Shown one piece after another: positions 7,024 to 31,164 of a stretch of 64,000 nucleotides of DNA. This DNA comes from Indolivaga macrotermitis (lineage in GTDB: Bacteria > Bacteroidota > Bacteroidia > Bacteroidales > Dysgonomonadaceae). Under the pieces are notes generated by a model that ran no database searches, had not been told where the DNA came from, and worked only from the letters and a program-made list of their open reading frames with translations. Location: positions 124,001 to 188,000 of the forward strand of contig NZ_FQUC01000002.1 of the NCBI RefSeq assembly GCF_900128985.1, written 5' to 3'. Numbering within the stretch: the stretch's first letter is position 1; each line of letters begins with the position of its first letter. The translations under genes and the position numbers were made by a program.

Positions 7024-7040
7024 ATAACAACTTTAGTATC

Positions 7041-8282
7041 ATGATTCAAGATTCGAAAAAGTACCCGTGGCTGGTAGTTGCCATGTTATGGTTTGTAGCA
7101 CTTCTGAACTATATGGACAGGCAGATGCTATCTACTATGCGTCCATTCATGGAAGGTGACATCAGTGAACTTGTTTCTGCTGCTAATTTCGGACGGCTGA
7201 TGGCCATATTCTTATGGATATATGCATTTATGAGCCCCGTTTCGGGACTTATTGCTGACCGGCTTAACAGGAAATGGCTCATTATCGGAAGTTTATTTAC
7301 ATGGTCGGGAGTCACCCTGTTGATGGGATATGCCCAGACTTTCGATCAATTGTACCTCCTGCGGGCTGTAATGGGTATCAGCGAAGCTTTCTATATTCCT
7401 GCGGGGCTTTCCCTGATAGCGGATTACCATCAGGGGAAAACACGTTCAATAGCAGTCGGATTCCATACTACAGGTATCTATCTGGGACAGGCCTTTGGTG
7501 GTTTCGGCGCAACAATAGCCGGAAGTTTCTCATGGCAGTCAACTTTCCATACTTTTGGCTTGATCGGGGTCCTTTATTCTATAATACTGATCCTATTCTT
7601 AAAAGAAAAGAAAGGATATACAATTGATAAGACGGAAAAAAAATCATTTACCGCCGAACTACAAGGAATGTGGAAAGCACTGATCGTGCTTTTCGGAAAC
7701 ATCTCATTCTGGGTTATCCTGTTCTATTTTTCGGCACCGAGTCTACCGGGATGGGCTACCAAAAACTGGTTGCCTACCCTATTTTCCAATAGCCTGAATA
7801 TAGAAATGGAACAGGCAGGTCCTATGTCGACTATAACCATTGCAATAGCTTCATTAGTAGGAGTACTGATCGGAGGATTCTTATCCGACAAATGGGTACA
7901 AAAGAATCTGAGAGGACGCATCTATACCGGAGTTATAGGGTTGGCCTTCACAATTCCTGCTCTATTCTTATTGGGATTCGGCGATAATCTGGTAACGATA
8001 GTATCGGGAGCACTATGCTTTGGTTTGGGATTCGGCATGTTCGATGTGAATAGTATGCCTATTCTATGCCAATTCGTTTCGCCCCGTTACAGGGCAACAG
8101 GATACGGGCTGATGAATCTGGCAGGTATTTCCGCCGGAGCGGTTATCACAAGCGTGTTGGGCAAATCGATCGATGCCGGGAACTTAGGGAAAGATTTTGC
8201 GATGCTGACAATAGTTGTTGCAGTAGCTATCGTGCTTAACCTGATCTTCCTGAAACCGACTACTGTAGACAAAACGGATTAA
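7041..8282 (+). CDS. MFS sugar or sugar-acid permease
   Basis: A 413-residue integral membrane protein with about twelve hydrophobic segments, beginning YPWLVVAMLWFVALLNYMDRQML. The loop between segments two and three carries GLIADRLNRKWLII, a major-facilitator signature A variant, and a similar GGFLSDKWVQKNLRGR occurs in the second half. It resembles the anion/hexuronate-type MFS group (ExuT/UhpC-like). An in-frame upstream start exists inside fucI, but the ATG at 7041, 17 bases after fucI, gives a normal N terminus for this family. Placed between an isomerase and a DapA/NanA-type aldolase, it probably brings the monosaccharide used by those enzymes across the inner membrane. The substrate could be L-fucose, Kdo or a related sugar acid; this is unresolved. 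Confidence 0.9.
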   Translation: MIQDSKKYPWLVVAMLWFVALLNYMDRQMLSTMRPFMEGDISELVSAANFGRLMAIFLWIYAFMSPVSGLIADRLNRKWLIIGSLFTWSGVTLLMGYAQTFDQLYLLRAVMGISEAFYIPAGLSLIADYHQGKTRSIAVGFHTTGIYLGQAFGGFGATIAGSFSWQSTFHTFGLIGVLYSIILILFLKEKKGYTIDKTEKKSFTAELQGMWKALIVLFGNISFWVILFYFSAPSLPGWATKNWLPTLFSNSLNIEMEQAGPMSTITIAIASLVGVLIGGFLSDKWVQKNLRGRIYTGVIGLAFTIPALFLLGFGDNLVTIVSGALCFGLGFGMFDVNSMPILCQFVSPRYRATGYGLMNLAGISAGAVITSVLGKSIDAGNLGKDFAMLTIVVAVAIVLNLIFLKPTTVDKTD

Positions 8283-8314: not shown

Positions 8315-9235
8315 ATGAACACACCTAAAAAGACACTTAGGGGAATTGTCCCCCCCATGATCACACCTCTGATAGACACAGATACTTTAGATACAAAAGG
8401 AGTTGAAAATCTGGTCGAACATCTCATAAAAGGAGGTGTAAGCGGAATTTTTATTCTAGGAACAACAGGTGAGGCTCAGCATCTGAGTGTCAAAATCAAA
8501 ACAGAACTTATAAAAAAGACTTGTGTTTGCGTAAACGGCCGGGTTCCCGTCTTGGTCGGGATTACTGATACTTCTGTATATGAGAGTATAAAATTAGCGG
8601 AAGTAGCAGCAGAATATAAGGCGGAAGCGGTAGTTGCCGCTCCCCCGTATTACTTTGCTTTGGGACAACCCGAGTTAATCGAATATTACACACTTTTAGC
8701 TGATAAATGCTCTTTGCCACTCTATCTGTATAACATGCCCTCGCATACCAAAACCATGATAGAACCCGGTACAGTGATGGCATTATCCAAACATAAAAAT
8801 GTAATAGGACTGAAAGACAGTTCGGCAAACGGAGTTTACTTCTGTAAGCTATTGTCCATGTTTAAAGATCAACCCGAATTTGAATTGTTTGTTGGACCAG
8901 AGGAAATGATGGCTTCTGTTGTGCTGATGGGTGCAAGCGGAGGTGTATCGGGAGGAGCGAATGTTTATCCCGAAATCTTTGTCGATGTGTATAATGCTGC
9001 GGCGAACAAAAATGTAGATAAAACTATCGAACTACAAAATAAAATGATGCTTGTCAGTCAGGAATTGTACGGTATAGGGCGATTCGGTTCGAGTTACATC
9101 AAAGGAATAAAGACAGCACTTTCGTTGAAAGGTATTTGCAGCGACTTCCTTGCACAGCCGTTCAATCTGTTCAAAGACCCAGAGAAAGAGAAAGTAAAAA
9201 TTGCCGTAGAAAAACTAGACAAATTACTGAAATGA
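8315..9235 (+). CDS. DapA/NanA-superfamily aldolase (pyruvate-dependent class I lyase)
   Basis: This 306-residue TIM-barrel protein belongs to the dihydrodipicolinate synthase / N-acetylneuraminate lyase superfamily. It shows GTTGEAQHLS (residue ~48-57), the catalytic tyrosine Y139 in LYNMPSHT, and the Schiff-base lysine K167 in VIGLKDSS. Members condense or release pyruvate; catabolic ones split 2-keto-3-deoxy sugar acids. In this operon a biosynthetic DapA role is unlikely. Candidate substrates are Kdo (giving pyruvate and D-arabinose, which FucI next door can isomerise), Dha, or 2-keto-3-deoxy-L-fuconate. Its stop codon overlaps the start of the GH28 gene as ATGA, pointing to translational coupling. 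Family assignment is firm; substrate is inferred from context. Confidence 0.9.
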   Translation: MNTPKKTLRGIVPPMITPLIDTDTLDTKGVENLVEHLIKGGVSGIFILGTTGEAQHLSVKIKTELIKKTCVCVNGRVPVLVGITDTSVYESIKLAEVAAEYKAEAVVAAPPYYFALGQPELIEYYTLLADKCSLPLYLYNMPSHTKTMIEPGTVMALSKHKNVIGLKDSSANGVYFCKLLSMFKDQPEFELFVGPEEMMASVVLMGASGGVSGGANVYPEIFVDVYNAAANKNVDKTIELQNKMMLVSQELYGIGRFGSSYIKGIKTALSLKGICSDFLAQPFNLFKDPEKEKVKIAVEKLDKLLK

Positions 9236-12276: not shown

Positions 12277-14733
12277 ATGATAAAAAAAACCTTACTAATC
12301 TTTGCTGTTATTTGTTTCTCTACCCAATTATCCGCTCAGGATAATCTGAAACTTTGGTACGACAAACCTGCTTCGGACTGGAACAGTGCATTACCGTTGG
12401 GTAATGGTCGTCTGGGGGCAATGGTTTTCGGAACGCCTGCCGTAGAACATTTACAGTTAAATGAAGAAACCATTTGGGCAGGTTCACCCAATAGCAATGC
12501 CCATAAACTGGAAGATGGCGTATTAGAAAAAGTGCGTCGGCTGATTTTTGAAGGGAAATATGAGGAGGCACAGGATATGGCAACCGCAAAAATCATGTCT
12601 CCCAAAAATCATGGAATGCCTTATCAGACTATGGGAGACCTTTTTATATCGTTCCCCAATCATAATAAATATGCGGACTATTACCGCGATCTGGATATCA
12701 GTAATGCGATAGCAAGTGTGTCGTATAAAGTGAATGGGGTGACCTATAAACGGGAGATGTTTACATCTTTCACTGATCAGGCGATAATTGTAAGACTAAC
12801 AGCTGACAAGCCTAAAAGCATCACTTGTAATGTATTCCTGACTACTCCACAGGAAAAAGTAGAAAGAGCAATAGATGGTGACCAGCTTGTACTTACGGGA
12901 CTGACTCCTGCCCATGAAAAGCAAAGCGGAAAAGTTCAGTTAGAGACCCGCGTAAAGCCAAAGGTAAAAGGTGGAACATACACTACTTCCGATGATATTA
13001 TTTCTATCGAAAATGCGGACGAAGCGATTTTGTATATTGTCATAGCAACCAATTTCGTGAATTACAAAGATATTTCGGGAGACAAGACTCAGAAATGCAA
13101 ACAATATATTTCGCAGTCTTTTGCGAATGACTATGAAAAAGCGAAAAAAGAGCATACAGCATTTTTCCGTCAGTATATGGACAGAATGTCGCTTGACTTG
13201 GGAAAAACCGAAGCATCTAACAAGCCTACTGATGTAAGAATTAAAGAGTTTTCTGAGACTTTCGATCCTCAGCTGGCTGCGCTTTATTTCCAGTTCGGGC
13301 GCTACCTGCTGATATCTTGCTCACAACCTGATACACAACCCGCTAATTTACAGGGGATATGGAATGACCGTTTTCTCCCTTCATGGGACAGTAAGTATAC
13401 ATGCAATATCAATCTGGAAATGAACTACTGGCCTGCCGAAGTGACTAACCTTACCGAGATGCACGAACCTATGTTGCAGTTAGTCCGTGAAGTAGCTGAA
13501 ACAGGTGAGCATACCGCAAAACTGATGTATAATACACGCGGATGGGTGCTTCATCACAATACGGATATCTGGCGGATAACGGGACCTGTAGACAGGGCAG
13601 CATCGGGTATGTGGCCGACTGGTGGCGCATGGGTTAGCCAGCACCTTTGGTACAGGTATTTGCAGACAGGAAACAAAGAATATTTGAAATCTATCTATCC
13701 TGTGATTCGTGGTGCAGCGATGTTTTTCAATGACTTTCTGATAGAAGAACCCGAACACGGCTGGCTGGTCGTATCACCTTCGAGCTCTCCCGAGAATACG
13801 CATTCGGGCAGTAATAATAAAGCGACAATAAGCGCAGGAACAACCATGGATAATCAGTTGGTTTTCGACTTATTCTCAAACGTGATTACCGCATCGGAAG
13901 TTCTAGGAATAGATAAAGACTTTTGTGATACACTTCGGACGAAGCGCGATAAACTGCCTCCTATGCAGGTCGGGCAACATAATCAGTTGCAGGAATGGAT
14001 GTACGATTGGGATCTACCCGATGATAAGCATCGCCACGTATCTCATTTATACGGATTATATCCCAGTAACCAGATATCTCCGATAAGAACACCCGAGCTG
14101 TTCGAAGCCGCTAAAAACTCGCTTATTTATCGCGGCGATCCTTCCACAGGTTGGTCTATGGGCTGGAAAGTTTGCCTGTGGGCGAGACTGTTAGACGGAG
14201 ATCATGCGTATAAGCTGCTGACCAATCAGCTCGATCTGGTTACCAACGAGAAAAAGAAAGGCGGGACATACAGCAATATGTTCGATGCTCACCCACCTTT
14301 TCAGATAGACGGCAACTTCGGATGTGCCGCAGGTATCGCCGAAATGTTTATGCAGAGCCATGACGGTTTCATCTATCTGCTACCTGCTCTTCCTTCGGTA
14401 TGGAAAAGCGGAAGTATAAAGGGGCTGGTTGCCCGAGGAGGTTTTGTTATCGATATGGATTGGAAGGATGGAAAAGTAACCGATCTGGCTATACAATCAC
14501 GTGAAGGGGGTAATTGCCGCCTGAGGATCGGTGTTCCGTTGAAAGGTAACGACATCAGGAAAGCAAAAGGAGAAAATCCGAACCCATTGTTTGCTGTTCC
14601 CGAAATAAAAACTCCTTTAATTTCCAGTAAAGCTACCTTAAAAGTTCAAGATTTAAACCTGGATAAAAACACCCTGCTTTACGATCTGAAAACAGAAAAA
14701 GGGAAGACATATAATTTCAAAATTTCAAAGTAA
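12277..14733 (+). CDS. GH95 alpha-L-galactosidase/alpha-L-fucosidase
   Basis: A secreted 818-residue GH95 enzyme. After the signal peptide, the N-terminal beta domain begins LWYDKPASDWNSALPLGNGR, a family hallmark, with LNEETIWAGSP following. The (alpha/alpha)6 catalytic domain has NINLEMNYWPAE (about 376-387), SPSSSPENTHSG with a glutamate near residue 505, and IDGNFGCAAGIAEM with an aspartate near 677. These match the positions of the catalytic Asn, Glu and Asp of GH95. GH95 members cleave alpha-1,2-linked L-fucose or L-galactose by inversion. Chain A of RG-II ends in L-galactose, and the B. thetaiotaomicron RG-II locus uses a GH95 enzyme there, so L-galactose is the likeliest target. The gene is packed 11 bases before GH105. 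Confidence 0.93.
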   Translation: MIKKTLLIFAVICFSTQLSAQDNLKLWYDKPASDWNSALPLGNGRLGAMVFGTPAVEHLQLNEETIWAGSPNSNAHKLEDGVLEKVRRLIFEGKYEEAQDMATAKIMSPKNHGMPYQTMGDLFISFPNHNKYADYYRDLDISNAIASVSYKVNGVTYKREMFTSFTDQAIIVRLTADKPKSITCNVFLTTPQEKVERAIDGDQLVLTGLTPAHEKQSGKVQLETRVKPKVKGGTYTTSDDIISIENADEAILYIVIATNFVNYKDISGDKTQKCKQYISQSFANDYEKAKKEHTAFFRQYMDRMSLDLGKTEASNKPTDVRIKEFSETFDPQLAALYFQFGRYLLISCSQPDTQPANLQGIWNDRFLPSWDSKYTCNINLEMNYWPAEVTNLTEMHEPMLQLVREVAETGEHTAKLMYNTRGWVLHHNTDIWRITGPVDRAASGMWPTGGAWVSQHLWYRYLQTGNKEYLKSIYPVIRGAAMFFNDFLIEEPEHGWLVVSPSSSPENTHSGSNNKATISAGTTMDNQLVFDLFSNVITASEVLGIDKDFCDTLRTKRDKLPPMQVGQHNQLQEWMYDWDLPDDKHRHVSHLYGLYPSNQISPIRTPELFEAAKNSLIYRGDPSTGWSMGWKVCLWARLLDGDHAYKLLTNQLDLVTNEKKKGGTYSNMFDAHPPFQIDGNFGCAAGIAEMFMQSHDGFIYLLPALPSVWKSGSIKGLVARGGFVIDMDWKDGKVTDLAIQSREGGNCRLRIGVPLKGNDIRKAKGENPNPLFAVPEIKTPLISSKATLKVQDLNLDKNTLLYDLKTEKGKTYNFKISK

Positions 14734-14744
14734 GAACATACATT

Positions 14745-15959
14745 ATGAAAAAATACATAAAATTCTCTTTAATAGGTTGTTTCGGCATTTTATTGTTTCT
14801 GAGTGCTTGCAAACAGGAACAAAAGAAAACCGAAGAAACAAAGGAAGACGACAGATGGTCTGTCAGAATGGCTCAGTCCGAAATGAAACGTTTTCCCGAA
14901 GCATGGATGATTGAGAAAGCGAAATCTCCACGATGGGGATATACACACGGATGTGTTGCCAAAGCTATGCTCGATATGTTCGATTATACACAGGACAGCG
15001 TATATTTCAATTATGCCAAAGGCTATGCCGATACGCTGATCACGCAAGACGGTCAGATAAAAACATACAACATGGCCAAGTTTAATATCGACAATATTAA
15101 TCCCGGGAAAATATTATTCCGCCTATATAAATCGACAGGTGACCAAAGATATAAAACCGCCATAGATACACTTGTGGCACAGATGAATATTCATCCCCGT
15201 ACCAAAGAAGGCGGATTCTGGCATAAGCAAATCTATCAGCATCAGATGTGGTTAGATGGCATTTATATGGCTTCTCCGTTTTTGGCGGAATATGCCAAAG
15301 ACTTCAATAAACCCGAAGTGTTTGATGATGTAGTGAAGCAAATCAAGCTGATGGATAAAAATACCTATGATGCGGAGTCAGGTTTATTCTATCACGGATG
15401 GGACGAAAGCAAAGAGCAAAAATGGGCAGATAAAACAACCGGACACTCTCCGAATTTCTGGACAAGAAGCGTCGGTTGGTATGCGATGGCTCTGGTAGAT
15501 GTTTTGGATTATTTACCGCAGGAACATGAGAGTAGAAAAGATATTCTGGAAATTATCGACAGGGTGGCCAAAGGTACGGTAAAGTGGCAGGATAAGAAAA
15601 CAGGTGTATGGTATCAGGTTACCAATATGGGAGATAAGGAAGGTAATTATCTCGAATCATCGGGTTCGTCCATGCTTGTATATTTTCTGTACAAAGCCAT
15701 GAACAAAGGCTATATTAACAAGGAATATAAGGCTGCTGCAGATAAAGGCTTTGACGGATTAGTGAAAGAATTCATCAAAAAAGAAGCAGACGGGACTTAT
15801 ACCATTACTAATTGTTGTGCGGTTGCCGGATTAGGCGGGGATAAAAAATACAGGGACGGTTCGTTCGAATATTACATCAGCGAACCAATTATCGAAAACG
15901 ATCCGAAATCTGTACCCACTTTCATTTGGGCGGCTATGGAGCATGAAAAAGCAAATTAA
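14745..15959 (+). CDS. GH105 unsaturated rhamnogalacturonyl/galacturonyl hydrolase, lipoprotein
   Basis: This 404-residue protein starts with a lipoprotein signal (lipobox LSAC, cysteine at residue 22), so it is probably anchored in a membrane. The rest is an (alpha/alpha)6 barrel of the YesR/YteR type (SPRWGYTHGCVAKAMLDM; HQMWLDGIYM with the catalytic aspartate near 170; KTTGHSPNFWTRSVGWYAMA). GH105 enzymes hydrate and release the 4,5-unsaturated uronic acid left at the non-reducing end after pectin lyases. No polysaccharide lyase gene is in the window, so its substrate must come from a lyase elsewhere, or it acts on another uronic acid terminus. It lies between GH95 and GH140 in the operon. 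Confidence 0.9.
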   Translation: MKKYIKFSLIGCFGILLFLSACKQEQKKTEETKEDDRWSVRMAQSEMKRFPEAWMIEKAKSPRWGYTHGCVAKAMLDMFDYTQDSVYFNYAKGYADTLITQDGQIKTYNMAKFNIDNINPGKILFRLYKSTGDQRYKTAIDTLVAQMNIHPRTKEGGFWHKQIYQHQMWLDGIYMASPFLAEYAKDFNKPEVFDDVVKQIKLMDKNTYDAESGLFYHGWDESKEQKWADKTTGHSPNFWTRSVGWYAMALVDVLDYLPQEHESRKDILEIIDRVAKGTVKWQDKKTGVWYQVTNMGDKEGNYLESSGSSMLVYFLYKAMNKGYINKEYKAAADKGFDGLVKEFIKKEADGTYTITNCCAVAGLGGDKKYRDGSFEYYISEPIIENDPKSVPTFIWAAMEHEKAN

Positions 15960-15975
15960 AAATTAAAAATAGAGA

Positions 15976-17409
15976 ATGATGAATTATCTGAAATTGAATT
16001 TTTTATTGATAGCATTCTGCATGATAACAAGCTCTGTAAATGCACAGGAAAGTTCGAACAAAATAGTAATTCCGTGGGAAAACGGAAAGCTGAAAGTCAG
16101 TGACAATAAGCGTTATCTTCAGCACGAAAACGGAAAACCATTCTTCTGGCTGGGAGAAACGGCATGGCTGTTACCTACCCGTTCCAACCGCGAGGAAGTA
16201 GATTACTTTATGGGCGAAACCCGTAAAAACGGTTACAATGTGGTGCAGATATCCACACTTCATTCAATCCCTGCAATGAATGCATACGGACATTGGGCAT
16301 TGCCGAATGGTTTCGACTTTAAAGATATAGATAAAGCCGGCGAATACAATTACTGGCAGCATGTCGATTATATTGTGGAAAGGGCACAAAGAAGCGGCAT
16401 GTACATTGGTATCGTTTGTGTATGGGGAGGTCCTGTAAAATCGAAACAAATGTCGGTCGAAGATGCTAAGAAATACGGACAATTCCTTGCCGAACGCTAT
16501 AAAAAATATCCGAATATCATCTGGATAATCGGAGGTGATGAGCGTGGCGATACACAACCTGAAGTTTGGCAAGCTTTAGCGACTACCATCAGAGATATCG
16601 ATTCGGATCACCTGATGACTTTCCACCCTCGCGGACGTACAATCTCAACCACTTGGTTCAATAACGAACCATGGCTCGATTTCAATATGTATCAATCAGG
16701 GCATCGCCGTTACAATCAGCGTAATGGGGATGGCGATTATCCTATCGAAGAAAATACAGAAGAAGACAACTGGCGTTTTGTAGAACGTAGTCTAGCAGTC
16801 AGCCCGTTAAAACCGGTTTTGGACGGTGAGCCTTCCTACGAGGATATACCTCACGGGTTACACGATGCCGACGAACGCCGCTGGCAGGCGGAAGATGTCC
16901 GCCGGTATGCCTATTGGTCGGTATTTGCAGGTTCATTCGGACATACTTACGGGCACAATTCGACCATGCAAATGCTTCGTCCCGGGTACCCACCTGCATT
17001 TGGTGCAAAAAAACCATGGTGGGATGCGATTCACGATCCCGGATGTCAGCAGATGAAATATCTGAAAAAGTTGATGCTGGCATTCCCATATTTTGACAGA
17101 ATACCCGATCAATCGGTAATCTCAAATGCCAACGGAAGTCAATACGAACGGGTAATAGCCACCCGTGGCAAAGATTATATTCTGGCTTACAATTACACCA
17201 ACCGCATAACAGAAATCGATATGACTAAAATATCGGGTACTAAAAAGAAAGCATGGTGGTATAGCCCGGTAAACGGTTCGGTCAGCTATATCGGTGAATT
17301 TGATAACGGTAAACAAACATTTGCCCACGATTCGGGATACGGTTCGGGTAATGATTGGGTACTTATTATTACAGATGCAAATGTTTCGTACGTAAAAGAT
17401 AATTTGTAA
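15976..17409 (+). CDS. GH140 apiosidase (RG-II backbone side-chain release)
   Basis: A secreted 477-residue TIM-barrel protein of the DUF4038/GH140 type. GH140 was defined by the B. thetaiotaomicron apiosidase that cuts apiose from galacturonic acid and so frees chains A and B of RG-II. As I recall, its catalytic residues are D187 and E284; here D188 in IIGGDERGD and E285 in LDGEPSYED fall at the same places, one residue later because of the double-methionine start (MMNY). Other conserved stretches are PFFWLGETAWLL and WSVFAGSFGHTYGH. Apiose is restricted to a few plant polymers, so this gene is one of the strongest markers of an RG-II locus. The residue match relies on memory of the published enzyme. 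Confidence 0.88.
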   Translation: MMNYLKLNFLLIAFCMITSSVNAQESSNKIVIPWENGKLKVSDNKRYLQHENGKPFFWLGETAWLLPTRSNREEVDYFMGETRKNGYNVVQISTLHSIPAMNAYGHWALPNGFDFKDIDKAGEYNYWQHVDYIVERAQRSGMYIGIVCVWGGPVKSKQMSVEDAKKYGQFLAERYKKYPNIIWIIGGDERGDTQPEVWQALATTIRDIDSDHLMTFHPRGRTISTTWFNNEPWLDFNMYQSGHRRYNQRNGDGDYPIEENTEEDNWRFVERSLAVSPLKPVLDGEPSYEDIPHGLHDADERRWQAEDVRRYAYWSVFAGSFGHTYGHNSTMQMLRPGYPPAFGAKKPWWDAIHDPGCQQMKYLKKLMLAFPYFDRIPDQSVISNANGSQYERVIATRGKDYILAYNYTNRITEIDMTKISGTKKKAWWYSPVNGSVSYIGEFDNGKQTFAHDSGYGSGNDWVLIITDANVSYVKDNL

Positions 17410-17469: not shown

Positions 17470-20400
17470 ATGAAAAAGACCTTATCAGCCTTCATCGCCT
17501 TACTTATATCTTTCGCTTTATTTTCGGCAGAAGTTACAGACCTTCGCTGCGAAATGTTCGATAATCCGGAAGGAATAAACACGACCGTTCCCCGCTTAAG
17601 CTGGATGATCAACTCAAAAGAGAGAAACGTACAACAGGTTTCTTATCATATACTTGTAGCATCTTCTTTAGATAAATTGAATAAAGGAGAAGCCGACTTG
17701 TGGGATTCAGGCGAAACCAAAAGTAACCAGTCTGCATACATCCCTTACGCAGGAAAACCATTACAGGACAGAAGCCAGGCTTACTGGAAAGTAACTATAC
17801 TGACAAACAAAGGAGAAACAGTATCCAGTAACACGGCAAAATTCAGTGTCGGTTTACTCAATGATACAGACTGGTCGGCGCAATGGATAGGTTTGGATAA
17901 GGCTTTTCCCTGGGACAGTGAAACACAACATTCGAGATTATCGGCACGTTATTTCAGAAAAGAATTTGCCAATACAAAAACCGTTAAGTCTGCAAAGGCA
18001 TATATTTCGGGTCTGGGATGGTACGAATTGTATATCAATGGCAAAAAGATAGGAAATCAGGCATTGGCACCTACTCCAACCGATTACACAGAATCTTTGA
18101 GATACAACACTTTCGATGTAACCTCCTATCTACAATCAGGTAAAAATGCTATCGGTACAATATTGGGTAACGGGCGTTTTTATAATATGAGGCAAAACTT
18201 CAAGCCACATAAGATAAAAACTTTCGGTTATCCTAAAATGCTTTTTCAGCTCGAAATCGAATACACCGATGGCACAAAACAAACTATAGTGAGTGACAAT
18301 ACATGGAAAGTAACATCAGACGGGCCTATCCGTTCCAATAACGACTTCGACGGAGAAGAATATGATGCAACGAAAGAACTTGGCGCATGGAACACTACCG
18401 GATACAATGATCGCAAATGGATGAAAGCCGAGTTGGTAGAAGCCCCGAAAGGCATACTTTCTGCCCAGACGAACGATAATATGGCAGTGATGCAGATAAT
18501 GAAACCTATCGGCATAAAAGCGCTTACTCCCGACACATTTATCGTGGATATGGGACAAAACATGGTCGGATGGGTACAACTGAAAGCCACCGGAAAAAAA
18601 GGTGATAAAATCACCCTGCGTTTTGCTGAGACGCTGGACGAAAACGGACGGCTCTATACCAGAAATCTCCGCAGTGCCAAAGCAACGGATATATATACGA
18701 TGAAAGGTGAAGGCGTAGAAACGTGGGAACCCCGGTTTGTTACGCATGGATTTCGTTTTATGGAAGTGACTGGCTATCCGGGAACTCCTGCCGCAACCGA
18801 CTTTGTGGGTAAAGTTGTATATGATAATATAGAATCGACAAGCACCTTCGAATCGTCTAATCAACTTCTCAACCAGATTCACAAAAATGCTTATTGGGGG
18901 ATCAACGGCAATTATAAAGGGGTGCCTCTCGATTGTCCCCAACGTGACGAACGTCAACCCTGGCTAGGCGACCATACAACAGGCTGCTTCGGCGAAAGTT
19001 TTATGTATGATAATGAACGCCTGTATGCCAAATGGATGGACGATATGAAAGATGCGCAGACAGAAGAGGGAACTATTCCCGACATCGTTCCACCCTATTA
19101 CATGACCTACTACAGCGATAATATGACATGGCCGGGAACCTACCTGTTCGTAGGGGAGATGCTGTACAAGCAGTATGGGAACACAGAGCCTATCATCAAG
19201 CATTATCCTTATATGAAAAAGTGGCTCAAGCATATGAAGGATAAATATATGACCTCCGAGTACATCGTTACCAAAGATAAATACGGAGACTGGTGCGTGC
19301 CACCCGAATCAAAAGAATTGATCCATACACAAGATCCTTCGCGTAAAACCGACGGACAGCTAATAGCAACAGCATACTATTACAAATTATTGCAGATGAT
19401 GATAAAGTTTGCAACCATCGCAGACCAAAAGCAGGATATAGAAGAATATACAGCTTTAGCTGAAAATATACGGGAAGCATTCAACCAGAAATTCTATAAT
19501 CCCTCAACCGGGCAATATAGCAATCATACCGTTACGGCAAATTTACTTCCTCTTGCTTTCGGTATGGTAGATAACGAAAATGAAGAACGCGTTTTTCAGA
19601 ATATGATAGACCGCATTATCAGAAATGACAAACTTCATATCAGTACCGGAGTTATCGGAACACAATGGCTGATGCGGGAACTTACTAAAAGAGGACGTAC
19701 AGATGTCGCCTACACCATTGCCTCTCAACCGAATTATCCGGGCTGGGGTTATATGGTAAATCAGGGGGCAACCACCATCTGGGAACTTTGGAACGGCGAT
19801 ACAGCCAATCCTTGGATGAACTCCCGTAATCATGTGATGATATTAGGTGACCTGATTATCTGGATGTACGAAGACCTTGCGGGAATTAAAAGCCATACAA
19901 CATACAACGGATTCAAATGGCTGTGGATGGAACCCAAACCAACAGAAGACCTGACCTACGTAAAAGCATCACACAAAACCCCATACGGATGGGCAAAAAG
20001 CGAATGGAATCTCGAAAACGGAATATTCACATGGAAAATAACCATTCCGGCAAATACGCGAGCAAATATACTTTTACCGGCAGAAGAAGTTACAGATATC
20101 ACCGAAGGAGGTAAACCTGTAAATGAAGTGGAAGGATTGAAATATGTCCGTAAAGAAGACGGACGTATCAATCTTGAAGTTGGTTCGGGCGAATATGTAT
20201 TTACCTGTAGATACGGTGTGGCTCAAGACCGTTGGAAAAAAGGAGTAATCACTCAGGAATTTATCAATGCCGATGCGTCCTATCCCGAAAGCCATGCTTC
20301 CACTATTGCCGAAACAAAAGAAGGGCATCTCGTTGCAGCATGGTTTGGAGGTACAAAAGAACGCAATCCGGATGTATGCATATGGGTAAGCCGCCTGATA

Positions 20401-22077
20401 AACGGAAAATGGACACCCGGACAAAATGTAGCCAACGGCATCGTCAATGATACACTCCGCTATGCAACATGGAATCCTGTATTGTATCAGGTTCCGAACG
20501 GAGAATTGCAATTATACTACAAAGTAGGGCCGAACGTTGCCGGATGGGTCGGTAAAATGATTACTTCGAACGACGGAGGTGTTACATGGTCTGCACCGAA
20601 AGATCTGCCAAAAGGATTTTTAGGTCCGGTTAAAAATAAACCTGTTTTGTTGAAAGACGGAACATTACTTTGCCCGTCGAGTACAGAAGGCAACGGATGG
20701 AAGGTACATTTCGAGGCAACAAACGACTTTGGTAAAACATGGAAAATGATAGGCCCTATCAATGAGGGTAAGAAAATGCATACTATACAGCCCTCAATTC
20801 TGACTTATAAAGACGGCAGTCTACAAATCCTATGCCGTACGCAGGAACGGGCTTTAGGTGAATCGTGGTCTTATGATAATGGTAAAACCTGGACGCCTAT
20901 GACTAAATCATCTTTACCGAGTACCAATTCGGGGACAGATGCAGTGACCTTACAGGACGGACGCCAGCTGATTGTATACAACCATGTATTGCCTAATGAT
21001 ACCCTACCGAGAGGTAAAGGATTCCGGACTCCTTTGAATGTAGCTGTTTCGAACGATGGCAAAACGTGGTATGCCGCACAGATTCTGGAGGACTCGCCTA
21101 TCGACCAGTATTCGTATCCTTCCGTTATCCAAAGTAAGGACGGTATGGTACATATCGTTTATACATGGCGCAGAAAAGGTATTAAATACGTAGAAGTCGA
21201 TCCAAGCAAATTAGTCTTGTCCAAAATAGAAAACATGCAATGGCCTTCATCGAAGGAAACTAAAGAAATACAAGTGGTTAACAACAATCGTTATAAGATT
21301 TCGGTATGTGACTGGATGATGCTCAAACGTCAGAAAGTAGGAGCAATGGAGCTGGCTAAAGAACTGACTGCCGACGGTCTTGAACTCGATATGGGAGGAC
21401 TTGGTAAACGAGTATCATTCGATAATAAATTCACCGAAAAGCATTTTCAGGAATTATTCATATCCGAGTGTAATCGTTTAGGTATACAACTCAGCTCGAT
21501 TGCTATGTCCGCTTTTTACGGACAATCCTTTGCCAAACGTGATAACTATGAGCAATTGATTGATGAATGTATAGCTACTATGAAAGCTTTAGGTGTAAAA
21601 GTAGCCTTCCTTCCGATGGGAAACCAGAGCGACATAGTAAAAGAACCCGGACTATACCCTATAGTTCTCCAAAGGCTGAAAGTAGTTGCAAAGAAAGCCG
21701 AAGCAGCAGGAGTAGTGATTGGTATAGAAACTACCTTAACAGCAAAAGAAGAAGCAAAATTACTCGATAAAATAAATTCGCCTGCTATCAAAAGCTATGT
21801 AAACTTTTCATCGATACTGAAGCGTAACGGAAATATTATCAAGGAACTGGAAACTCTGGGCAAAGATCGTATCATTCAGATTCATGCAAGCAATACCGAT
21901 GGATTCTGGATCGAAAACGACCCCGCCCTCAATATGCCAGAAGTAAAAAAGACATTGGATAAAATGGGTTGGAGCGGCTGGCTCGTAGTGGAACGTTCGC
22001 GCGATACAAACGATGTTCATAACGTAAAGAAAAATTACGGTGCGAATGTCAGGTATCTGAAATCGGTATTTCAATAA
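17470..22077 (+). CDS. Three-part fusion: GH78 alpha-L-rhamnosidase, BNR/sialidase-fold propeller, xylose-isomerase-like TIM barrel
   Basis: A 1535-residue protein with a signal peptide (ALLISFALFSA). Residues about 23-915 are a complete GH78 rhamnosidase: N-terminal Fn3-like domain (VTDLRCEMFDNPEGI), jelly rolls, an (alpha/alpha)6 barrel with D488CPQRDERQPWLGD (acid candidates D493/E494) and E772 in TIWELWNGD. Residues about 918-1265 are a propeller with four Asp-boxes (SNDGGVTW, TNDFGKTW, SYDNGKTW, SNDGKTW), like BNR/sialidase proteins, but I see no FRIP motif; the equivalent start reads SYPESHAS. Residues about 1276-1535 are an AP-endonuclease-2/xylose-isomerase-like barrel (VCDWMMLKR, IGIETTLT, IQIHASNTDG, WLVVERSRD). 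The frame is continuous with no sign of a frameshift. Each part is known alone; I do not know a characterised protein with all three. Rhamnose removal is a firm prediction; the other two roles are unknown. Confidence 0.88.
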   Translation: MKKTLSAFIALLISFALFSAEVTDLRCEMFDNPEGINTTVPRLSWMINSKERNVQQVSYHILVASSLDKLNKGEADLWDSGETKSNQSAYIPYAGKPLQDRSQAYWKVTILTNKGETVSSNTAKFSVGLLNDTDWSAQWIGLDKAFPWDSETQHSRLSARYFRKEFANTKTVKSAKAYISGLGWYELYINGKKIGNQALAPTPTDYTESLRYNTFDVTSYLQSGKNAIGTILGNGRFYNMRQNFKPHKIKTFGYPKMLFQLEIEYTDGTKQTIVSDNTWKVTSDGPIRSNNDFDGEEYDATKELGAWNTTGYNDRKWMKAELVEAPKGILSAQTNDNMAVMQIMKPIGIKALTPDTFIVDMGQNMVGWVQLKATGKKGDKITLRFAETLDENGRLYTRNLRSAKATDIYTMKGEGVETWEPRFVTHGFRFMEVTGYPGTPAATDFVGKVVYDNIESTSTFESSNQLLNQIHKNAYWGINGNYKGVPLDCPQRDERQPWLGDHTTGCFGESFMYDNERLYAKWMDDMKDAQTEEGTIPDIVPPYYMTYYSDNMTWPGTYLFVGEMLYKQYGNTEPIIKHYPYMKKWLKHMKDKYMTSEYIVTKDKYGDWCVPPESKELIHTQDPSRKTDGQLIATAYYYKLLQMMIKFATIADQKQDIEEYTALAENIREAFNQKFYNPSTGQYSNHTVTANLLPLAFGMVDNENEERVFQNMIDRIIRNDKLHISTGVIGTQWLMRELTKRGRTDVAYTIASQPNYPGWGYMVNQGATTIWELWNGDTANPWMNSRNHVMILGDLIIWMYEDLAGIKSHTTYNGFKWLWMEPKPTEDLTYVKASHKTPYGWAKSEWNLENGIFTWKITIPANTRANILLPAEEVTDITEGGKPVNEVEGLKYVRKEDGRINLEVGSGEYVFTCRYGVAQDRWKKGVITQEFINADASYPESHASTIAETKEGHLVAAWFGGTKERNPDVCIWVSRLINGKWTPGQNVANGIVNDTLRYATWNPVLYQVPNGELQLYYKVGPNVAGWVGKMITSNDGGVTWSAPKDLPKGFLGPVKNKPVLLKDGTLLCPSSTEGNGWKVHFEATNDFGKTWKMIGPINEGKKMHTIQPSILTYKDGSLQILCRTQERALGESWSYDNGKTWTPMTKSSLPSTNSGTDAVTLQDGRQLIVYNHVLPNDTLPRGKGFRTPLNVAVSNDGKTWYAAQILEDSPIDQYSYPSVIQSKDGMVHIVYTWRRKGIKYVEVDPSKLVLSKIENMQWPSSKETKEIQVVNNNRYKISVCDWMMLKRQKVGAMELAKELTADGLELDMGGLGKRVSFDNKFTEKHFQELFISECNRLGIQLSSIAMSAFYGQSFAKRDNYEQLIDECIATMKALGVKVAFLPMGNQSDIVKEPGLYPIVLQRLKVVAKKAEAAGVVIGIETTLTAKEEAKLLDKINSPAIKSYVNFSSILKRNGNIIKELETLGKDRIIQIHASNTDGFWIENDPALNMPEVKKTLDKMGWSGWLVVERSRDTNDVHNVKKNYGANVRYLKSVFQ

Positions 22078-22096: not shown

Positions 22097-23932
22097 ATGA
22101 AGAATCTTATAATAATATTGTTTTTACTTCTTTCTGCCCCGATTTTTGGAGCAGAAATATATGTCTCCCCTAAAGGAAATGATTTTAATCAGGGAACACA
22201 ATCCGAGCCCAAAGCAACGCTTCACGCAGCAATAAGGGAAGCCCGCGAATTACGCCGATTACAGAAAGTAGGCAAAGACGAATCTATACGCATTCTGATG
22301 CAGGGCGGAACATACAATATGTATGAACCCGTTTTCATACGTTCCGAAGATTCGGGAACCGAGACAAGCCCGACAATTATAGAAGCCATACAAGGGCAAC
22401 AACCAATCTTAAGTGGAGGAATAAAGGTAACAGATTGGAAAAAAGAAGGTAAGTTCTGGGTGGCAGATGTACCCTCTTTCAACGGAAACAGAATCCGGTT
22501 TCGTCAATTCTGGGTAAACGGACAAAAGGCCGTCAGGGCCAGAAATGTTTCCGATTTTGAAAAAATGGACAGAATCAGGAGCAATGACAAGAAGAACGAA
22601 ATATTATGGATTCCTGCTTCGGCAGTAAAAGGCTTAGCCAAAGCCGAAAACCTGGAACTGGTTATTCATCAAATGTGGGCAATCGCTAACCTGAGGGTAA
22701 AATCCATAATAGTGCAAGGCGATTCGGCAGGCATACAGTTTCATAGTCCCGAATCACGTATTCAGTTCGAACACCCTTGGCCTCAGCCGATGGTGAAGGA
22801 AGGATTTAATTCGGCTTTCTATTTTACCAACGCTATTGAATTACTGGATGAGCCCGGTGAATGGTATCATGATACAAAAACGAATAAACTCTATTATTTC
22901 CCTCGCAAAGGCGAAGATATGAGAAGTGCCGAAACTATAGTGCCGGCTTTGGAAACACTTATAGAAATCACAGGAACGCTCGACCGCCCTGTACGGCATA
23001 TCCAGTTTAAAGGAATATCTTTCCAATATACTACATGGACACGCCCATCCGAAAAAGGGCATGTACCCCTTCAGGCAGGAATGTACCTGGTGGATGGCTA
23101 TAAGCTAAGACCTCCCGGCGTCCCCGGAAATTTTAATAAAGGAATCGAAAACCAGGGATGGATAGGGCGTCCACCTGCCGCTGTAATGGTACAGGCTGCT
23201 CAATATACACGGTTCGACGAATGCCGTTTCGAGCAGATGGGTTCATGCGGGATCGATTTTCTATACGGAACCCAATATGATGTTGTGAACGGTTGCCTCT
23301 TCAGGGATATTGCAGGAAACGCGATGCAAATAGGTAAAATGTCGGATACCGCTATGGAGACACATTTACCCTATGACCCTTCGGATGACAAAGAAATCTG
23401 CTCATACCAAACTATTTCAAACAATTACATCACCGATGTGACTAACGATGACTGGGGAACCGTAGCTATCTGCGCCGGATTCGTAAAAGATATAAATATC
23501 GAGTATAACGAGATAAGCGAAATCTCATATACAGGAATCAGTTTGGGATGGGGATGGACCAAGACTGTTAATTGTATGCGCAACAACCGCATACATGGTA
23601 ACTACATCCATCATTACGCCAAACATATGTATGATGTAGCAGGTATCTATACCCTTTCGGTTCAGTCTAAATCGTACATTACCGAAAATGCCGTAGAAAA
23701 GATATACAGTCCGTCTTATGTACACGATCCGCACCATTGGTTCTACTTATATACGGACGAAGGGAGTTCGTTCTTTACAGTAAAAGATAACTGGTGTCCC
23801 GAAGAAAAATTTCTTCAAAATGCCAATGGACCCGGTAATGAATGGACTAATAACGGTCCTATGGTAAACGATACTATCCGGCAAAAAGCAGGATTACAGC
23901 CTCAATATAAATGGATTAAGAATTTAGAATAA
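22097..23932 (+). CDS. GH141-type parallel beta-helix alpha-L-fucosidase
   Basis: A secreted 611-residue right-handed beta-helix protein. The signal peptide ends near FGA. The mature protein opens EIYVSPKGNDFNQGTQSEPKATL, continues with LMQGGTYNMYEPVFIRSEDSG, and contains SGGIKVTDW and RQFWVNGQKAVRARN, features of the GH141 family. The family was founded on the B. thetaiotaomicron enzyme that removes alpha-L-fucose from RG-II chain A; a xylanase is also known in it. Released L-fucose would feed FucI in the same operon. The gene is 19 bases after the fusion gene and 10 before GH78. Family assignment is from overall pattern, and I have not aligned catalytic residues. Confidence 0.82.
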   Translation: MKNLIIILFLLLSAPIFGAEIYVSPKGNDFNQGTQSEPKATLHAAIREARELRRLQKVGKDESIRILMQGGTYNMYEPVFIRSEDSGTETSPTIIEAIQGQQPILSGGIKVTDWKKEGKFWVADVPSFNGNRIRFRQFWVNGQKAVRARNVSDFEKMDRIRSNDKKNEILWIPASAVKGLAKAENLELVIHQMWAIANLRVKSIIVQGDSAGIQFHSPESRIQFEHPWPQPMVKEGFNSAFYFTNAIELLDEPGEWYHDTKTNKLYYFPRKGEDMRSAETIVPALETLIEITGTLDRPVRHIQFKGISFQYTTWTRPSEKGHVPLQAGMYLVDGYKLRPPGVPGNFNKGIENQGWIGRPPAAVMVQAAQYTRFDECRFEQMGSCGIDFLYGTQYDVVNGCLFRDIAGNAMQIGKMSDTAMETHLPYDPSDDKEICSYQTISNNYITDVTNDDWGTVAICAGFVKDINIEYNEISEISYTGISLGWGWTKTVNCMRNNRIHGNYIHHYAKHMYDVAGIYTLSVQSKSYITENAVEKIYSPSYVHDPHHWFYLYTDEGSSFFTVKDNWCPEEKFLQNANGPGNEWTNNGPMVNDTIRQKAGLQPQYKWIKNLE

Positions 23933-23942
23933 AGATATTATC

Positions 23943-26102
23943 ATGAAACATATACTTTCAATACTGTTGGTTATGACATTCTTTACAACAAGCTTTGCCC
24001 GGAAAGCCACATGGATATATTATCCCGGCGATTACGAAATATGGCTCGGCAATGAAATGCAGAACCGCAGAACCGAACGTGGCGGATTCTTCCCTCCTTT
24101 CTGGAAAATGGACAGCCACTATGTTGCTGTTGAGTTTTCCACAAAACTCGATTTACCGGCCGCCGAAGAAATTGAAATATATGTAGAAGGAAAATACAAT
24201 ATAAAACTGGATGGAAAGATACTGCCCGCATATGACAGGATGACCATTCCGGCCGGAAAGCATAACCTGAATATCAAAGTATATAATCAGGCAAATGTAC
24301 CTGCTATTTACGTAAAAGGTAAAACGTTTGGCTCGGACGAAACATGGAAAGTTACTTTCGAAGATAAAGAATGGATAGACGAATCGGGTAAAGCTTCGGA
24401 TACATCTTCGGGGACTACTTACCTGAATGCCGGAGCATGGAACTTCGATTCGCCGGATACTCCTCCTTCCAAGTTCAAACTAGCTACTACTCCGATGGAT
24501 GCCGTCAAAATAGAAAATAAGGAAAAGGGCATCTTAGTCGATTTCGGAAAAGAAACATTCGGGTTCGTTAAATTTCATAACCTGTCGGGAAAAGGGAAAT
24601 TGTCCGTTTATTACGGAGAATCACCCGAAGAAGCTTTGGACAAAGAGTATTGCGAAACGCTGGATCATTTTGACTTCGGTAATGATTCCCGGGATTTCGT
24701 AACACCCGATTCTAAAGCGTTCCGTTATATCTATATCGAGAAAGACAATAATTTATCTTTCGATAATGTTTCTATGCTTTATGAGTATCTGCCTTTGGAA
24801 TATAGGGGCAGTTTCAAATGTAATGATGAACTTATCAATAAAATATGGGATGTATCGGCATATACGATGCACCTCACTTCCCGTGAGTTCTTTATAGACG
24901 GTATCAAGCGCGACCGCTGGATCTGGAGCGGCGACGCTTATCAAAGCTATTTGATGAACTATTATTTGTTCTTCGATTCTCCTTCCGTATCACGCACAAT
25001 GTTGAACCTTAGAGGTAAAGATCCCGTAACCAGTCATACCAATACCATTATGGACTATACATTCTACTGGTTTATGGGTATCTATGACTATTTGCAATAC
25101 ACCGGTGATTATAATTTTGTACAGCAGTTTTATCCACGTATGCAGAGCCTGATGGATTTCTGCCTGTCGAGAAGGAACAGCAACGGCATGATGGAGGGAT
25201 TGGCTGGCGATTGGGTATTTATCGATTGGGCCGACTTCAAAATGAGCAAAAGCGGAGAGGTAAGTATCGAGCAGCTATTATTTTGCCGTAGCCTCGAAAC
25301 AATGGCACTTTGCGCAAAGATTATGAATGATCCGGAAAATGAAAAAAAGTATTCTGCTCTGGCTTCCGACCTTCGTGAGAAACTATTCACGGCTTTCTGG
25401 TCTGCGGATAAAGGTGCATTTATTCATAACCGCGAAAATGGAAAAATGAGTGAACAAGTAACGCCATACACCAATATGTTTGCGGTACTGTTCAATTATC
25501 TGGATAATGAAAAAACCGAAGCTGTAAAAAAGAACGTGTTATTGAATCCCGATGCATTGAAAATTACAACTCCCTACATGCGGTTTTACGAACTGGAAGC
25601 CCTTTGTGCATTGGGTGAACACGATTATGTGCTGAAAGAGATCCGCGATTATTGGGGTGGTATGCTTAATTTAGGTGCAACTTCTTTCTGGGAAAAATAC
25701 AATCCGGATGAAAAAGGGACGGAGCATCTGGCTATGTATGGCCGCCCCTATGGCAAAAGCCTTTGCCATGCATGGGGAGCAAGCCCGATATATCTGTTGG
25801 GAAAATATTACATAGGAGTAAAACCCGAAAAAGAAGGTTATAAAGAGTTTAGCATTCGCCCTGTTCTCGGAGACCTGAAATGGATGGAAGGATCGGTTCC
25901 GACTCCCGATGGAGATATCAACGTTTATATGGACAAACAACAAATAAAAGTATCCGCAACAGAAGGCGAAGGATATTTATACTTTACCTCTGTATCCAAA
26001 CCAAAATCCAATACGGGAACAATAGAACAGATTGAAAAGGATAAATATAAAATTAAAATAACTTCATCGGCAAACGAATATATAATAAAAGGGAAATTCT
26101 AA
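23943..26102 (+). CDS. GH78 alpha-L-rhamnosidase
   Basis: A secreted 719-residue GH78 enzyme, shorter than the rhamnosidase module of the upstream fusion. N-terminal jelly-roll domains (ATWIYYPGDYEIWLGNEMQ) precede the (alpha/alpha)6 barrel. The acid region reads DGIKRDRWIWSGD (D319, D324, D331), and the probable base is the glutamate in TSFWEKYNPDE (about residue 583). C-terminal beta domain contains EFSIRPVLGDLKW-like sequence typical of GH78. In RG-II, L-rhamnose occurs in chains A, B and C, and B. thetaiotaomicron uses separate rhamnosidases for each. This is the last PUL gene of the plus-strand series; a 126-base gap with its own -7 box separates it from phzF. Confidence 0.92.
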   Translation: MKHILSILLVMTFFTTSFARKATWIYYPGDYEIWLGNEMQNRRTERGGFFPPFWKMDSHYVAVEFSTKLDLPAAEEIEIYVEGKYNIKLDGKILPAYDRMTIPAGKHNLNIKVYNQANVPAIYVKGKTFGSDETWKVTFEDKEWIDESGKASDTSSGTTYLNAGAWNFDSPDTPPSKFKLATTPMDAVKIENKEKGILVDFGKETFGFVKFHNLSGKGKLSVYYGESPEEALDKEYCETLDHFDFGNDSRDFVTPDSKAFRYIYIEKDNNLSFDNVSMLYEYLPLEYRGSFKCNDELINKIWDVSAYTMHLTSREFFIDGIKRDRWIWSGDAYQSYLMNYYLFFDSPSVSRTMLNLRGKDPVTSHTNTIMDYTFYWFMGIYDYLQYTGDYNFVQQFYPRMQSLMDFCLSRRNSNGMMEGLAGDWVFIDWADFKMSKSGEVSIEQLLFCRSLETMALCAKIMNDPENEKKYSALASDLREKLFTAFWSADKGAFIHNRENGKMSEQVTPYTNMFAVLFNYLDNEKTEAVKKNVLLNPDALKITTPYMRFYELEALCALGEHDYVLKEIRDYWGGMLNLGATSFWEKYNPDEKGTEHLAMYGRPYGKSLCHAWGASPIYLLGKYYIGVKPEKEGYKEFSIRPVLGDLKWMEGSVPTPDGDINVYMDKQQIKVSATEGEGYLYFTSVSKPKSNTGTIEQIEKDKYKIKITSSANEYIIKGKF

Positions 26103-31148: not shown

Positions 31149-31164
31149 AAGAAATACTTTTAAT

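What the first reader, a model, noticed from the sequence alone, without database searches (positions are those of the whole stretch)
17470..22077. Three-part GH78 / Asp-box propeller / xylose-isomerase-like fusion in an RG-II locus
One continuous 1535-residue secreted protein joins a full rhamnosidase, a sialidase-fold propeller with four Asp-boxes, and a TIM barrel related to sugar isomerases. RG-II chain C is Rha-alpha-1,5-Kdo; a rhamnosidase followed by a hydrolase of a 2-keto-3-deoxy acid would strip it completely. Against this, the propeller lacks the usual FRIP arginine that binds the carboxylate in sialidases, so it may act on another sugar. The third domain is more often cytoplasmic; in a secreted protein it may work on a free or keto sugar.
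Basis: partly seen in the sequence, partly recalled or inferred. Interest (0 to 1): 0.85.

Follow-up and report, generated by a model that had tools for sequence, protein, structure and literature searches.

The report
RG-II chain-C enzyme with isomerase-like tail
A gut-type bacterium makes one exported protein that most likely strips both sugars of one side chain of the plant pectin RG-II, and the protein carries a third, isomerase-like part, seen here only in RG-II-degrading bacteria, whose job is still unknown.

Summary
The fusion is real. ORF 17470-22077(+), 1535 aa, joins a GH78 rhamnosidase, a sialidase-fold propeller (BNR_2) and a xylose-isomerase-like TIM barrel. Ten of 37 fetched relatives have all three in one frame and they form one clade. 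Elsewhere the parts are adjacent genes in the same order or fused in pairs. The locus is an RG-II locus.

Chain C (GH78 takes Rha, propeller takes Kdo) is the best reading, not proven. Two of three sialidase arginines are kept; the FRIP arginine is His. The window holds FucI, a transporter and an NAL-type lyase, a plausible Kdo route. The GH78-propeller pair is not new: Bacteroides finegoldii has it at the inferred BT1013 position, and an RG-II Kdo hydrolase of GH33 is named in print.

New is the TIM barrel. It occurs in 13 of 393 genomes of the order, all 13 with a strong BT_1020 marker and the propeller. Nine stand-alone relatives inspected carry export signals. Asn stands at the usual Asp metal place. 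Its reaction is unknown; it often adjoins the propeller, but also GH141, so Kdo is only the favoured substrate.

In passing: proteobacterial propellers lie in operons that look like Dha catabolism via D-threonate.

The parts
17470..22077 (+). three-domain ORF, 1535 aa, N-terminal export signal (by eye)
17533..20109 (+). GH78 alpha-L-rhamnosidase part, residues 22-880; motifs DERQPWLGD (493) and TTIWELWNG (768)
   Evidence: Pfam; motif places; that these hold the catalytic acid and base is recalled
20230..21294 (+). sialidase-fold propeller, residues 921-1275; H942, D968, Q1107, R1123, R1186, Y1214/Y1216
21316..22074 (+). xylose-isomerase-like TIM barrel, residues 1283-1535; E1420, N1445, H1472, E1508 at the places of the usual metal ligands (ligand role recalled)
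15976..17409 (+). apiosidase-like (GH140) protein, likely BT1012 counterpart
   Evidence: Pfam; counterpart by order
22097..23932 (+). GH141-type protein
   Evidence: Pfam GH141_M
23943..26102 (+). GH78-like protein next to GH141, possible BT1001 counterpart
   Evidence: Pfam; counterpart by order only
12277..14733 (+). GH95
   Evidence: Pfam
14745..15959 (+). GH88 family by Pfam (GH105 possible)
   Evidence: Pfam
5248..7023 (+). FucI, L-fucose (and D-arabinose) isomerase
   Evidence: NCBIfam equivalog over cut-off; Pfam
6993..8282 (+). MFS transporter (TTG start listed, true start likely further in)
8315..9235 (+). DHDPS/NAL-family lyase, proposed Kdo aldolase; no NCBIfam model over its cut-off
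43421..47881 (-). beta-D-glucuronidase/beta-L-arabinofuranosidase (BT0996-type GH137-GH2, name recalled)
   Evidence: NF049877 over cut-off
47990..50665 (-). alpha-D-galacturonidase (GH138, name recalled)
   Evidence: NF049878 over cut-off

Best explanation
The protein is an exported enzyme for RG-II side chain C. The GH78 part removes the terminal L-rhamnose from Rha-alpha-1,5-Kdo; the sialidase-fold propeller then splits Kdo from the galacturonan backbone; the TIM barrel, a metal-type isomerase-like domain seen only in RG-II degraders here, handles something released at that point, most likely the freed keto acid, by an unknown reaction. Kdo is then imported (MFS here, SSF elsewhere), cleaved by the DHDPS/NAL-family lyase to pyruvate and D-arabinose, and D-arabinose is turned to D-ribulose by FucI. 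Shown: domains, order, conservation, predicted folds, RG-II setting, gene neighbourhoods. Inferred: every substrate and reaction.
For: Fusion series: GH78, propeller and TIM are three adjacent genes in Neptunitalea L051 and the Rufibacter plasmid L180, GH78 | propeller-TIM in L046 and L047, GH78-propeller | TIM in G064 (L117), all three fused in the Dysgonomonas clade. Tree of 71 propellers: the tri-fusion is one clade (SH-aLRT 98); TIM fusion needs at least 3 changes, GH78 fusion at least 4 (quick tree, gain and loss not told apart). Fold of the propeller: after an unknown-function chain (5hx0, ranks 1-2) the listed best matches are nearly all sialidases, TM 0.64-0.75. R1123 and R1186 71 of 71, acid/base D968 68 of 71. 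The genome has three BNR_2 matches: this one, the BT_1020 homologue (Dha, recalled) and a 47-bit one on another contig. TIM: 13 of 393 genomes, all 13 among the 20 with a strong PF24067 match and all with the propeller. Neighbours: window FucI-MFS-DHDPS; FucI, SSF and DHDPS in a row in L194, L199, L205, with two frames between in L201; TIM next to DHDPS with MFS close by in L135 and L142; a Klebsiella plasmid has FGGY kinase - protein with a weak Fucose_iso_C match (23.8 bits, under the cut-off 29.3) - DHDPS - propeller - MFS. NAL enzymes make Kdo from pyruvate and D-arabinose (PMC4016182, passages); a FucI interconverts D-arabinose and D-ribulose (PMC6894278, passages). 'Kdo hydrolase (GH33)' is named among RG-II enzymes in PMC11214529 (passage) and listed under GH33 in PMC9120202 (table passage).
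Against: FRIP Arg is His and the catalytic Glu is Gln1107; Y1214, aligned with the sialidase nucleophile, is kept in 36 of 36 RG-II-type rows but in 17 of 35 others, while the neighbouring Y1216 is 71 of 71, so the mechanism may not be the standard one. GH140 apiosidase, not a chain-C gene, is the direct neighbour of the GH78-propeller here and in Bacteroides and Prevotella loci, and another GH78 sits next to the BT_1020 homologue, so which GH78 takes the chain-C rhamnose is not proven. The DHDPS gene is missing at 1e-40 from 5 of 13 TIM genomes (G133, G165, G315, G327, G384). FucI also serves L-fucose, which RG-II contains; the DHDPS could serve another keto-deoxy acid (a talarate/galactarate-dehydratase-like gene, 32674-33747, lies in the window). 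TIM directly adjoins GH141 in 8 of 22 contexts, nearly as often as it adjoins or is fused to the propeller (9 of 22). One metal place is Asn instead of Asp.
Confidence: 0.55

Rival explanations
1. Same chain-C function for GH78 and propeller, but the TIM barrel works on another RG-II sugar: D-apiose or aceric acid as an aldose-ketose isomerase, or a product of the GH141 step.
For: GH140 lies directly upstream of the fusion here and in relatives. TIM, alone or at the end of the fusion, directly adjoins GH141 in 8 of 22 contexts: tri-fusion clade (window, L039, L040, G133), L048, L049, L052, G108, G208, G384 and, by a weak GH141 match, G282. All 13 TIM genomes have aceric acid hydrolase over cut-off, against 3 of the 7 marker genomes without TIM. 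In G315 the TIM gene (fused to DUF3826) stands beside the aceric acid hydrolase. That D-apiose isomerase is of the same Pfam family is recalled, not tested.
Against: Of 22 contexts (tri-fusion clade counted once) TIM is fused to or next to the propeller in 9, one gene away in 4, next to DHDPS in 2. No fusion of TIM with GH140, GH141 or GH127 was seen in these. The link to aceric acid hydrolase is not special: GH138 shows the same 13 of 13 against 3 of 7. GH140 is present in 5 of the 7 marker genomes without TIM.
Confidence: 0.28
2. The propeller does not cleave Kdo; it takes another acidic or neutral sugar of RG-II, or Dha as proposed for the proteobacterial relatives.
For: FRIP Arg and catalytic Glu replaced. 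Seven proteobacterial relatives sit with Fe-alcohol dehydrogenase and PdxA-type genes, which fit Dha.
Against: Dha is already served by the BT_1020 homologue in the same genome (its activity recalled). The seven proteobacterial rows are one clade, parted together with a Streptomyces row from the other 63 by a branch of 2.24 changes per column, and differ at conserved places (Q1107 to His, K1018 to Thr, E1073 to Cys, 7 of 7). The FucI neighbours fit a pentose product.
Confidence: 0.2
3. Propeller and TIM are non-catalytic or binding add-ons; only GH78 is active.
For: Lost FRIP Arg and Glu; TIM ligand place D to N.
Against: 71 of 71 rows keep H942, E964, R1123, R1186, Y1216; TIM keeps H1472 and N1445 in 18 of 18 and E1420, E1508 in 17 of 18; both exist as stand-alone genes with export signals by eye, which is odd for mere binding modules.
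Confidence: 0.1

Closest known systems
Bacteroides RG-II GH78-propeller protein (B. finegoldii UHF62_RS18445, 1288 aa), inferred BT1013 position
   Same: Same GH78 + BNR_2 propeller order, next to GH140, in an RG-II locus
   Different: No TIM barrel attached; the TIM gene (57% identical) stands apart, before DUF4992-SusC-SusD. That B. theta BT1013 is filed as GH78/GH33 is recalled, not seen
BT_1020 (RG-II chain D)
   Same: An RG-II side-chain pair (Araf + Dha) served by one fused protein; the homologue here also has a BNR_2 match just at cut-off (31.6 bits)
   Different: Different families and another chain. Its activities and GH142/GH143 names are recalled
GH33 sialidases
   Same: Propeller fold, Asp-boxes, two of three triad Arg, acid/base Asp
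   Different: FRIP Arg to His, catalytic Glu to Gln, nucleophile place uncertain
Plant GH33 proteins
   Same: Kdo and Dha were proposed as their substrates in PMC6852159 (passage)
   Different: A speculation in that paper; plant sequences were not compared here
UlaE / D-psicose 3-epimerase / DgpB-C / AL1 TIM barrels (PF01261)
   Same: Fold (TM 0.66-0.81, 11-17% identity among the 50 listed)
   Different: Exported, RG-II-only in the genomes searched, Asn at one metal place; no NCBIfam model above cut-off

Membership tests
GH78 | N-terminal, concanavalin-like, six-hairpin and C-terminal modules in order | tested here: met
   all over gathering score
GH78 | catalytic acid and base glutamates | tested here: inconclusive
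   motifs DERQPWLGD and TTIWELWNG present; their role is recalled
GH33 sialidase | sialidase propeller fold | tested here: met
   predicted model only
GH33 sialidase | arginine triad including FRIP Arg | tested here: not met
   R1123 and R1186 kept, FRIP place is H942
GH33 sialidase | Tyr/Glu nucleophile pair | tested here: not met
   Glu is Q1107; Tyr place Y1214 kept here but in 17 of 35 non-RG-II rows
GH33 Kdo hydrolase | hydrolysis of Kdo from RG-II | not testable with these tools
   needs an assay
PF01261 sugar isomerase/epimerase | profile and fold | tested here: met
PF01261 sugar isomerase/epimerase | metal ligands Glu-Asp-His-Glu (recalled) | tested here: not met
   E1420, N1445, H1472, E1508; Asn in 18 of 18, aligned with Asp of D-tagatose 3-epimerase
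D-apiose isomerase | similarity to ApsI or activity on apiose | not tested
   no ApsI sequence was at hand
RG-II utilisation locus | BT0996- and GH138-type enzymes, aceric acid hydrolase, GH140, GH141, BT_1020 | tested here: met

The most novel reading that the evidence does not exclude
The TIM barrel is a new kind of exported, metal-type sugar enzyme found only in RG-II degraders, which changes the freed Kdo (anomer, isomer or a first cleavage step) before import; and the propeller family as a whole is a family of ulosonic-acid glycosidases whose neighbours tell the sugar: FucI or FGGY kinase for Kdo, Fe-ADH/PdxA/four-carbon acid kinase (via D-threonate) for Dha.
Probability: 0.34. Interest if true: 0.72.

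Novelty: new variant of a known kind. Interest (0 to 1): 0.52.

Why it matters
[quoted passage not shown] I found no paper on what bacteria do with its keto acids Kdo and Dha after release, in listings of open-licence papers only. The fusion series ties an unassigned exported protein, seen only with RG-II genes, to the proposed Kdo-releasing step and gives a testable route from chain C to central metabolism. The proteobacterial operons suggest the same for Dha in plant-associated bacteria.

Tried and rejected
Sequencing or frame artefact: rejected, same fusion in many assemblies.

GH78 part as the BT1001 counterpart (Rha-Api): considered because GH141 follows; set aside because the next gene but one (23943-26102, GH78-like) stands beside GH141 and the fusion stands at the inferred BT1013 position by synteny with B. 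finegoldii. Computed extinction coefficients of four B. finegoldii genes (32430, 60850, 138660, 73690) are within 5% of those printed for BT1018, BT1021, BT1012, BT1017 in PMC7939467 (passages), which supports the synteny; a rough check. It is not excluded that this GH78 works on Rha-Api.

First hand mapping of the arginine triad (N1171 as second Arg) was wrong and was replaced by the HMMER alignment to 9db6/4fj6.

Kdo hydrolases of lipopolysaccharide (KdoH1/2 of Helicobacter and Francisella): passages of three papers read; those passages mention no sialidase link, and no sequences were fetched.

Ndeh et al. 2017 is not held. Literature searches; of these only listings were seen except for passages of PMC7939467, PMC12282258, PMC6852159, PMC5811610, PMC3245313, PMC5371381, PMC3342949, PMC13001218, PMC11214529, PMC9120202, PMC7922503, PMC4016182 and PMC6894278.

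Apparent two copies of aceric acid hydrolase are one gene seen in two overlapping stretches (L107, L108); one search shows one over-cut-off match in G000.

VIA-align was not available; no model coordinates were at hand, so the pocket itself was not measured.

Full report
OBSERVATION. The ORF at 17470-22077(+) encodes 1535 aa in one frame. Pfam places a complete GH78 (residues 22-880), a BNR_2 propeller (952-1229) and an AP_endonuc_2 TIM barrel (1294-1532). Three canonical Asp-boxes and one shortened one lie in the propeller. The window and its flank hold RG-II genes: two NCBIfam equivalogs over cut-off, apiosidase-like GH140, GH141, GH95, GH88, GH28 and GH106 by Pfam, and upstream of the window on the same contig a BT_1020 homologue and an aceric acid hydrolase.

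FUSION HISTORY. Of 37 loci found with the propeller-TIM query in the named genome collection, 10 carry all three domains in one frame (L037-L045, L061), Dysgonomonas and other Bacteroidales by title. The unnamed same-genus genome G133 carries it too; G019 does as well, but its contig has the length of the L038 record (78,938), so it is probably the same genome and is not counted again. Other states: three adjacent genes GH78, propeller, TIM (Neptunitalea L051, Rufibacter plasmid L180); GH78 | propeller-TIM (Mariniflexile L046, L047); propeller-TIM after a short GH78-like frame (G108) or after a GH140-DUF3826 gene (G208); GH78-propeller | TIM (G064, L117); GH78-propeller, esterase-like gene, TIM (Niastella L049); GH78-propeller with TIM apart (B. 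finegoldii) or not in the stretch (Phocaeicola L055, Prevotella L057). On a quick ML tree of 71 propellers the tri-fusion is one clade (support 98); fusion with TIM needs at least 3 changes and with GH78 at least 4, gain and loss not told apart. Repeated joining of the same genes argues that they serve one task.

THE PROPELLER. Its model (pLDDT 89) matches first a chain of unknown function (5hx0) and then nearly only sialidases (TM 0.64-0.75 among the 50 listed). A profile alignment to 9db6 and 4fj6 maps the second and third triad arginines to R1123 and R1186, the catalytic Glu to Q1107 and the nucleophile to Y1214. In 71 kept rows H942 (FRIP place), E964, R1123, R1186 and Y1216 are 71 of 71; D968 is 68 of 71; Y1214 is 36 of 36 in RG-II-type rows but 17 of 35 elsewhere. 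A far row left out, L065, has Arg at the FRIP place. It may work like a 2-keto-acid glycosidase; it does not meet the GH33 sialidase residue set.

WHY KDO. (1) Chain C ends in alpha-1,5-Rha on a keto acid (PMC12282258, passages), and GH78 is the steady partner. (2) In this genome three BNR_2 matches exist; one is in the BT_1020 homologue and one is a 47-bit match on another contig. (3) Neighbours. The window has FucI (5248), MFS (6993) and a DHDPS/NAL-family lyase (8315). FucI, SSF and DHDPS recur in a row in L194, L199, L205 and with two frames between in L201. TIM stands next to DHDPS with an MFS gene close by in L135 and L142. In 4 of 4 non-marker comparison genomes that hold both at the thresholds used, DHDPS and a propeller lie 2.5-3.9 kb apart; three of these and L151 have the order DHDPS - SSF - propeller. 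Around 35 further propeller stretches, 7 held a DHDPS match, 5 of them above 200 bits. A Klebsiella plasmid has FGGY kinase - a protein with a weak Fucose_iso_C match (23.8 bits, cut-off 29.3) - DHDPS - propeller - MFS; its DHDPS is only a distant relative of the window's (30 bits). DHDPS of the window's type occurs in 14 of 20 marker genomes and 6 of 36 hand-picked others (Fisher p 1e-4). NAL enzymes make Kdo from D-arabinose and pyruvate (PMC4016182, passages) and a FucI handles D-arabinose/D-ribulose (PMC6894278, passages). Against: 5 of 13 TIM genomes lack this DHDPS; FucI also serves L-fucose; a talarate/galactarate-dehydratase-like gene in the window could feed the lyase; GH140 is the direct neighbour of GH78-propeller here and in Bacteroides and Prevotella loci, which would also fit Rha-Api.

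KNOWN OR NEW. B. finegoldii has GH78-propeller (1288 aa) beside GH140, in an RG-II locus whose other genes line up with BT1012-BT1021 (activities of BT1001, BT1012, BT1017, BT1018, BT1021 from PMC7939467, passages). That puts the pair at the BT1013 place, by inference. A metaproteomics paper names 'Kdo hydrolase (GH33)' among RG-II enzymes (PMC11214529, passage) and a table lists it under GH33 (PMC9120202, passage). I recall BT1013 as GH78/GH33 but could not see it (Ndeh et al. 2017 not held). So the first two domains are a known kind; the added TIM barrel is the variant.

THE TIM BARREL. Model pLDDT 91.5; nearest folds UlaE, D-psicose 3-epimerase, DgpB-C and the 3-keto-glucoside lyase AL1 (TM 0.66-0.81, 11-17% identity among the 50 listed). 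No NCBIfam model reaches its cut-off. In 393 genomes of the order it is found in 13; the weakest match is 3e-59 and nothing lies between that and the limit of 1e-15. All 13 are among the 20 genomes with a strong PF24067 match and all 13 have the propeller. Genomes in one order are not independent, so the p of 1e-19 is only a guide. The propeller is in 19 of the 20 marker genomes and 27 of the other 373. Nine stand-alone TIM proteins seen with their N-termini carry export signals by eye: twin-arginine type (L048, L051, L052, L053), Sec type (L012, L033, L034) or a lipobox (L049, L060); twin-arginine export would suit a metal enzyme folded inside. Metal places E1420, N1445, H1472, E1508; E1420 is missing in L060 and E1508 is Gln in L052. 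In G315 it is fused to DUF3826. Neighbours in 22 contexts (tri-fusion clade counted once): fused to or next to the propeller 9, one gene away 4, next to DHDPS 2, neither 7; next to GH141 in 8, overlapping these groups. Among the 20 marker genomes, aceric acid hydrolase and GH138 over cut-off are each 13 of 13 with TIM and 3 of 7 without, GH140 13 of 13 and 5 of 7. These numbers cannot name the sugar; the fusions with the propeller are why freed Kdo is preferred.

DHA BRANCH. Of 14 plasmid records read around a propeller (picked from 311; their gene tables are incomplete), 7 have Fe-alcohol dehydrogenase with a PdxA or D-threonate-4-phosphate dehydrogenase gene, 5 an annotated DHDPS-family gene and, within the Fe-ADH/PdxA group, 4 a four-carbon acid sugar kinase (Croceibacterium has one too, in another setting). 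The other records (Rufibacter, Monoglobus, Croceibacterium, Paraburkholderia, Pandoraea, Streptomyces) show neither DHDPS nor this set. [quoted passage not shown] by my own Fischer derivation its reduction gives D-threonate, which fits the Pantoea annotation. These seven propellers are a separate far clade. L043 carries such a set (DHDPS, SSF, Fe-ADH, PdxA, SBD_N/NBD_C kinase) directly after the tri-fusion.

VERDICT. Real, conserved, best read as an RG-II chain-C enzyme; the two-domain core is known from Bacteroides, the attached TIM barrel is unassigned and is what deserves the bench.

Noticed in passing
L183, L187, L188, L189, L190, L191, L192 (plasmids): Propeller with Fe-ADH and PdxA-type genes, often with DHDPS lyase and four-carbon acid sugar kinase; looks like an unassigned Dha catabolic operon ending in D-threonate.
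   Followed up: partly
L182:3756-10487: Klebsiella plasmid genes FGGY kinase, weakly fucose-isomerase-like protein (annotated 'signal transduction protein'), DHDPS, propeller, MFS: a possible Kdo operon between insertion sequences.
   Followed up: partly
L043:9908-15862: A second DHDPS with SSF, Fe-ADH, PdxA and kinase genes follows the tri-fusion in a Dysgonamonadaceae bin.
   Followed up: partly
L133:9576-11120: TIM barrel fused to DUF3826, the unknown C-terminal domain of BT1017-type esterases.
   Followed up: no
window 30504-31229: Stand-alone DUF3826 protein; DUF3826 genes stand beside the propeller in L052, L054 and L137.
   Followed up: no
L137:3190-3915: Protein with an L-rhamnose mutarotase domain, between DHDPS and a GH141-like gene that is followed by TIM, in an RG-II locus.
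   Followed up: no
L108:9126-12263: DUF6298 protein (1045 aa) recurring in several RG-II loci, function unknown.
   Followed up: no
tri-fusion clade, L048, L049, L052, G108, G208, G384, G282: TIM directly adjoins GH141 in 8 of 22 contexts, a link that the Kdo reading does not explain.
   Followed up: partly
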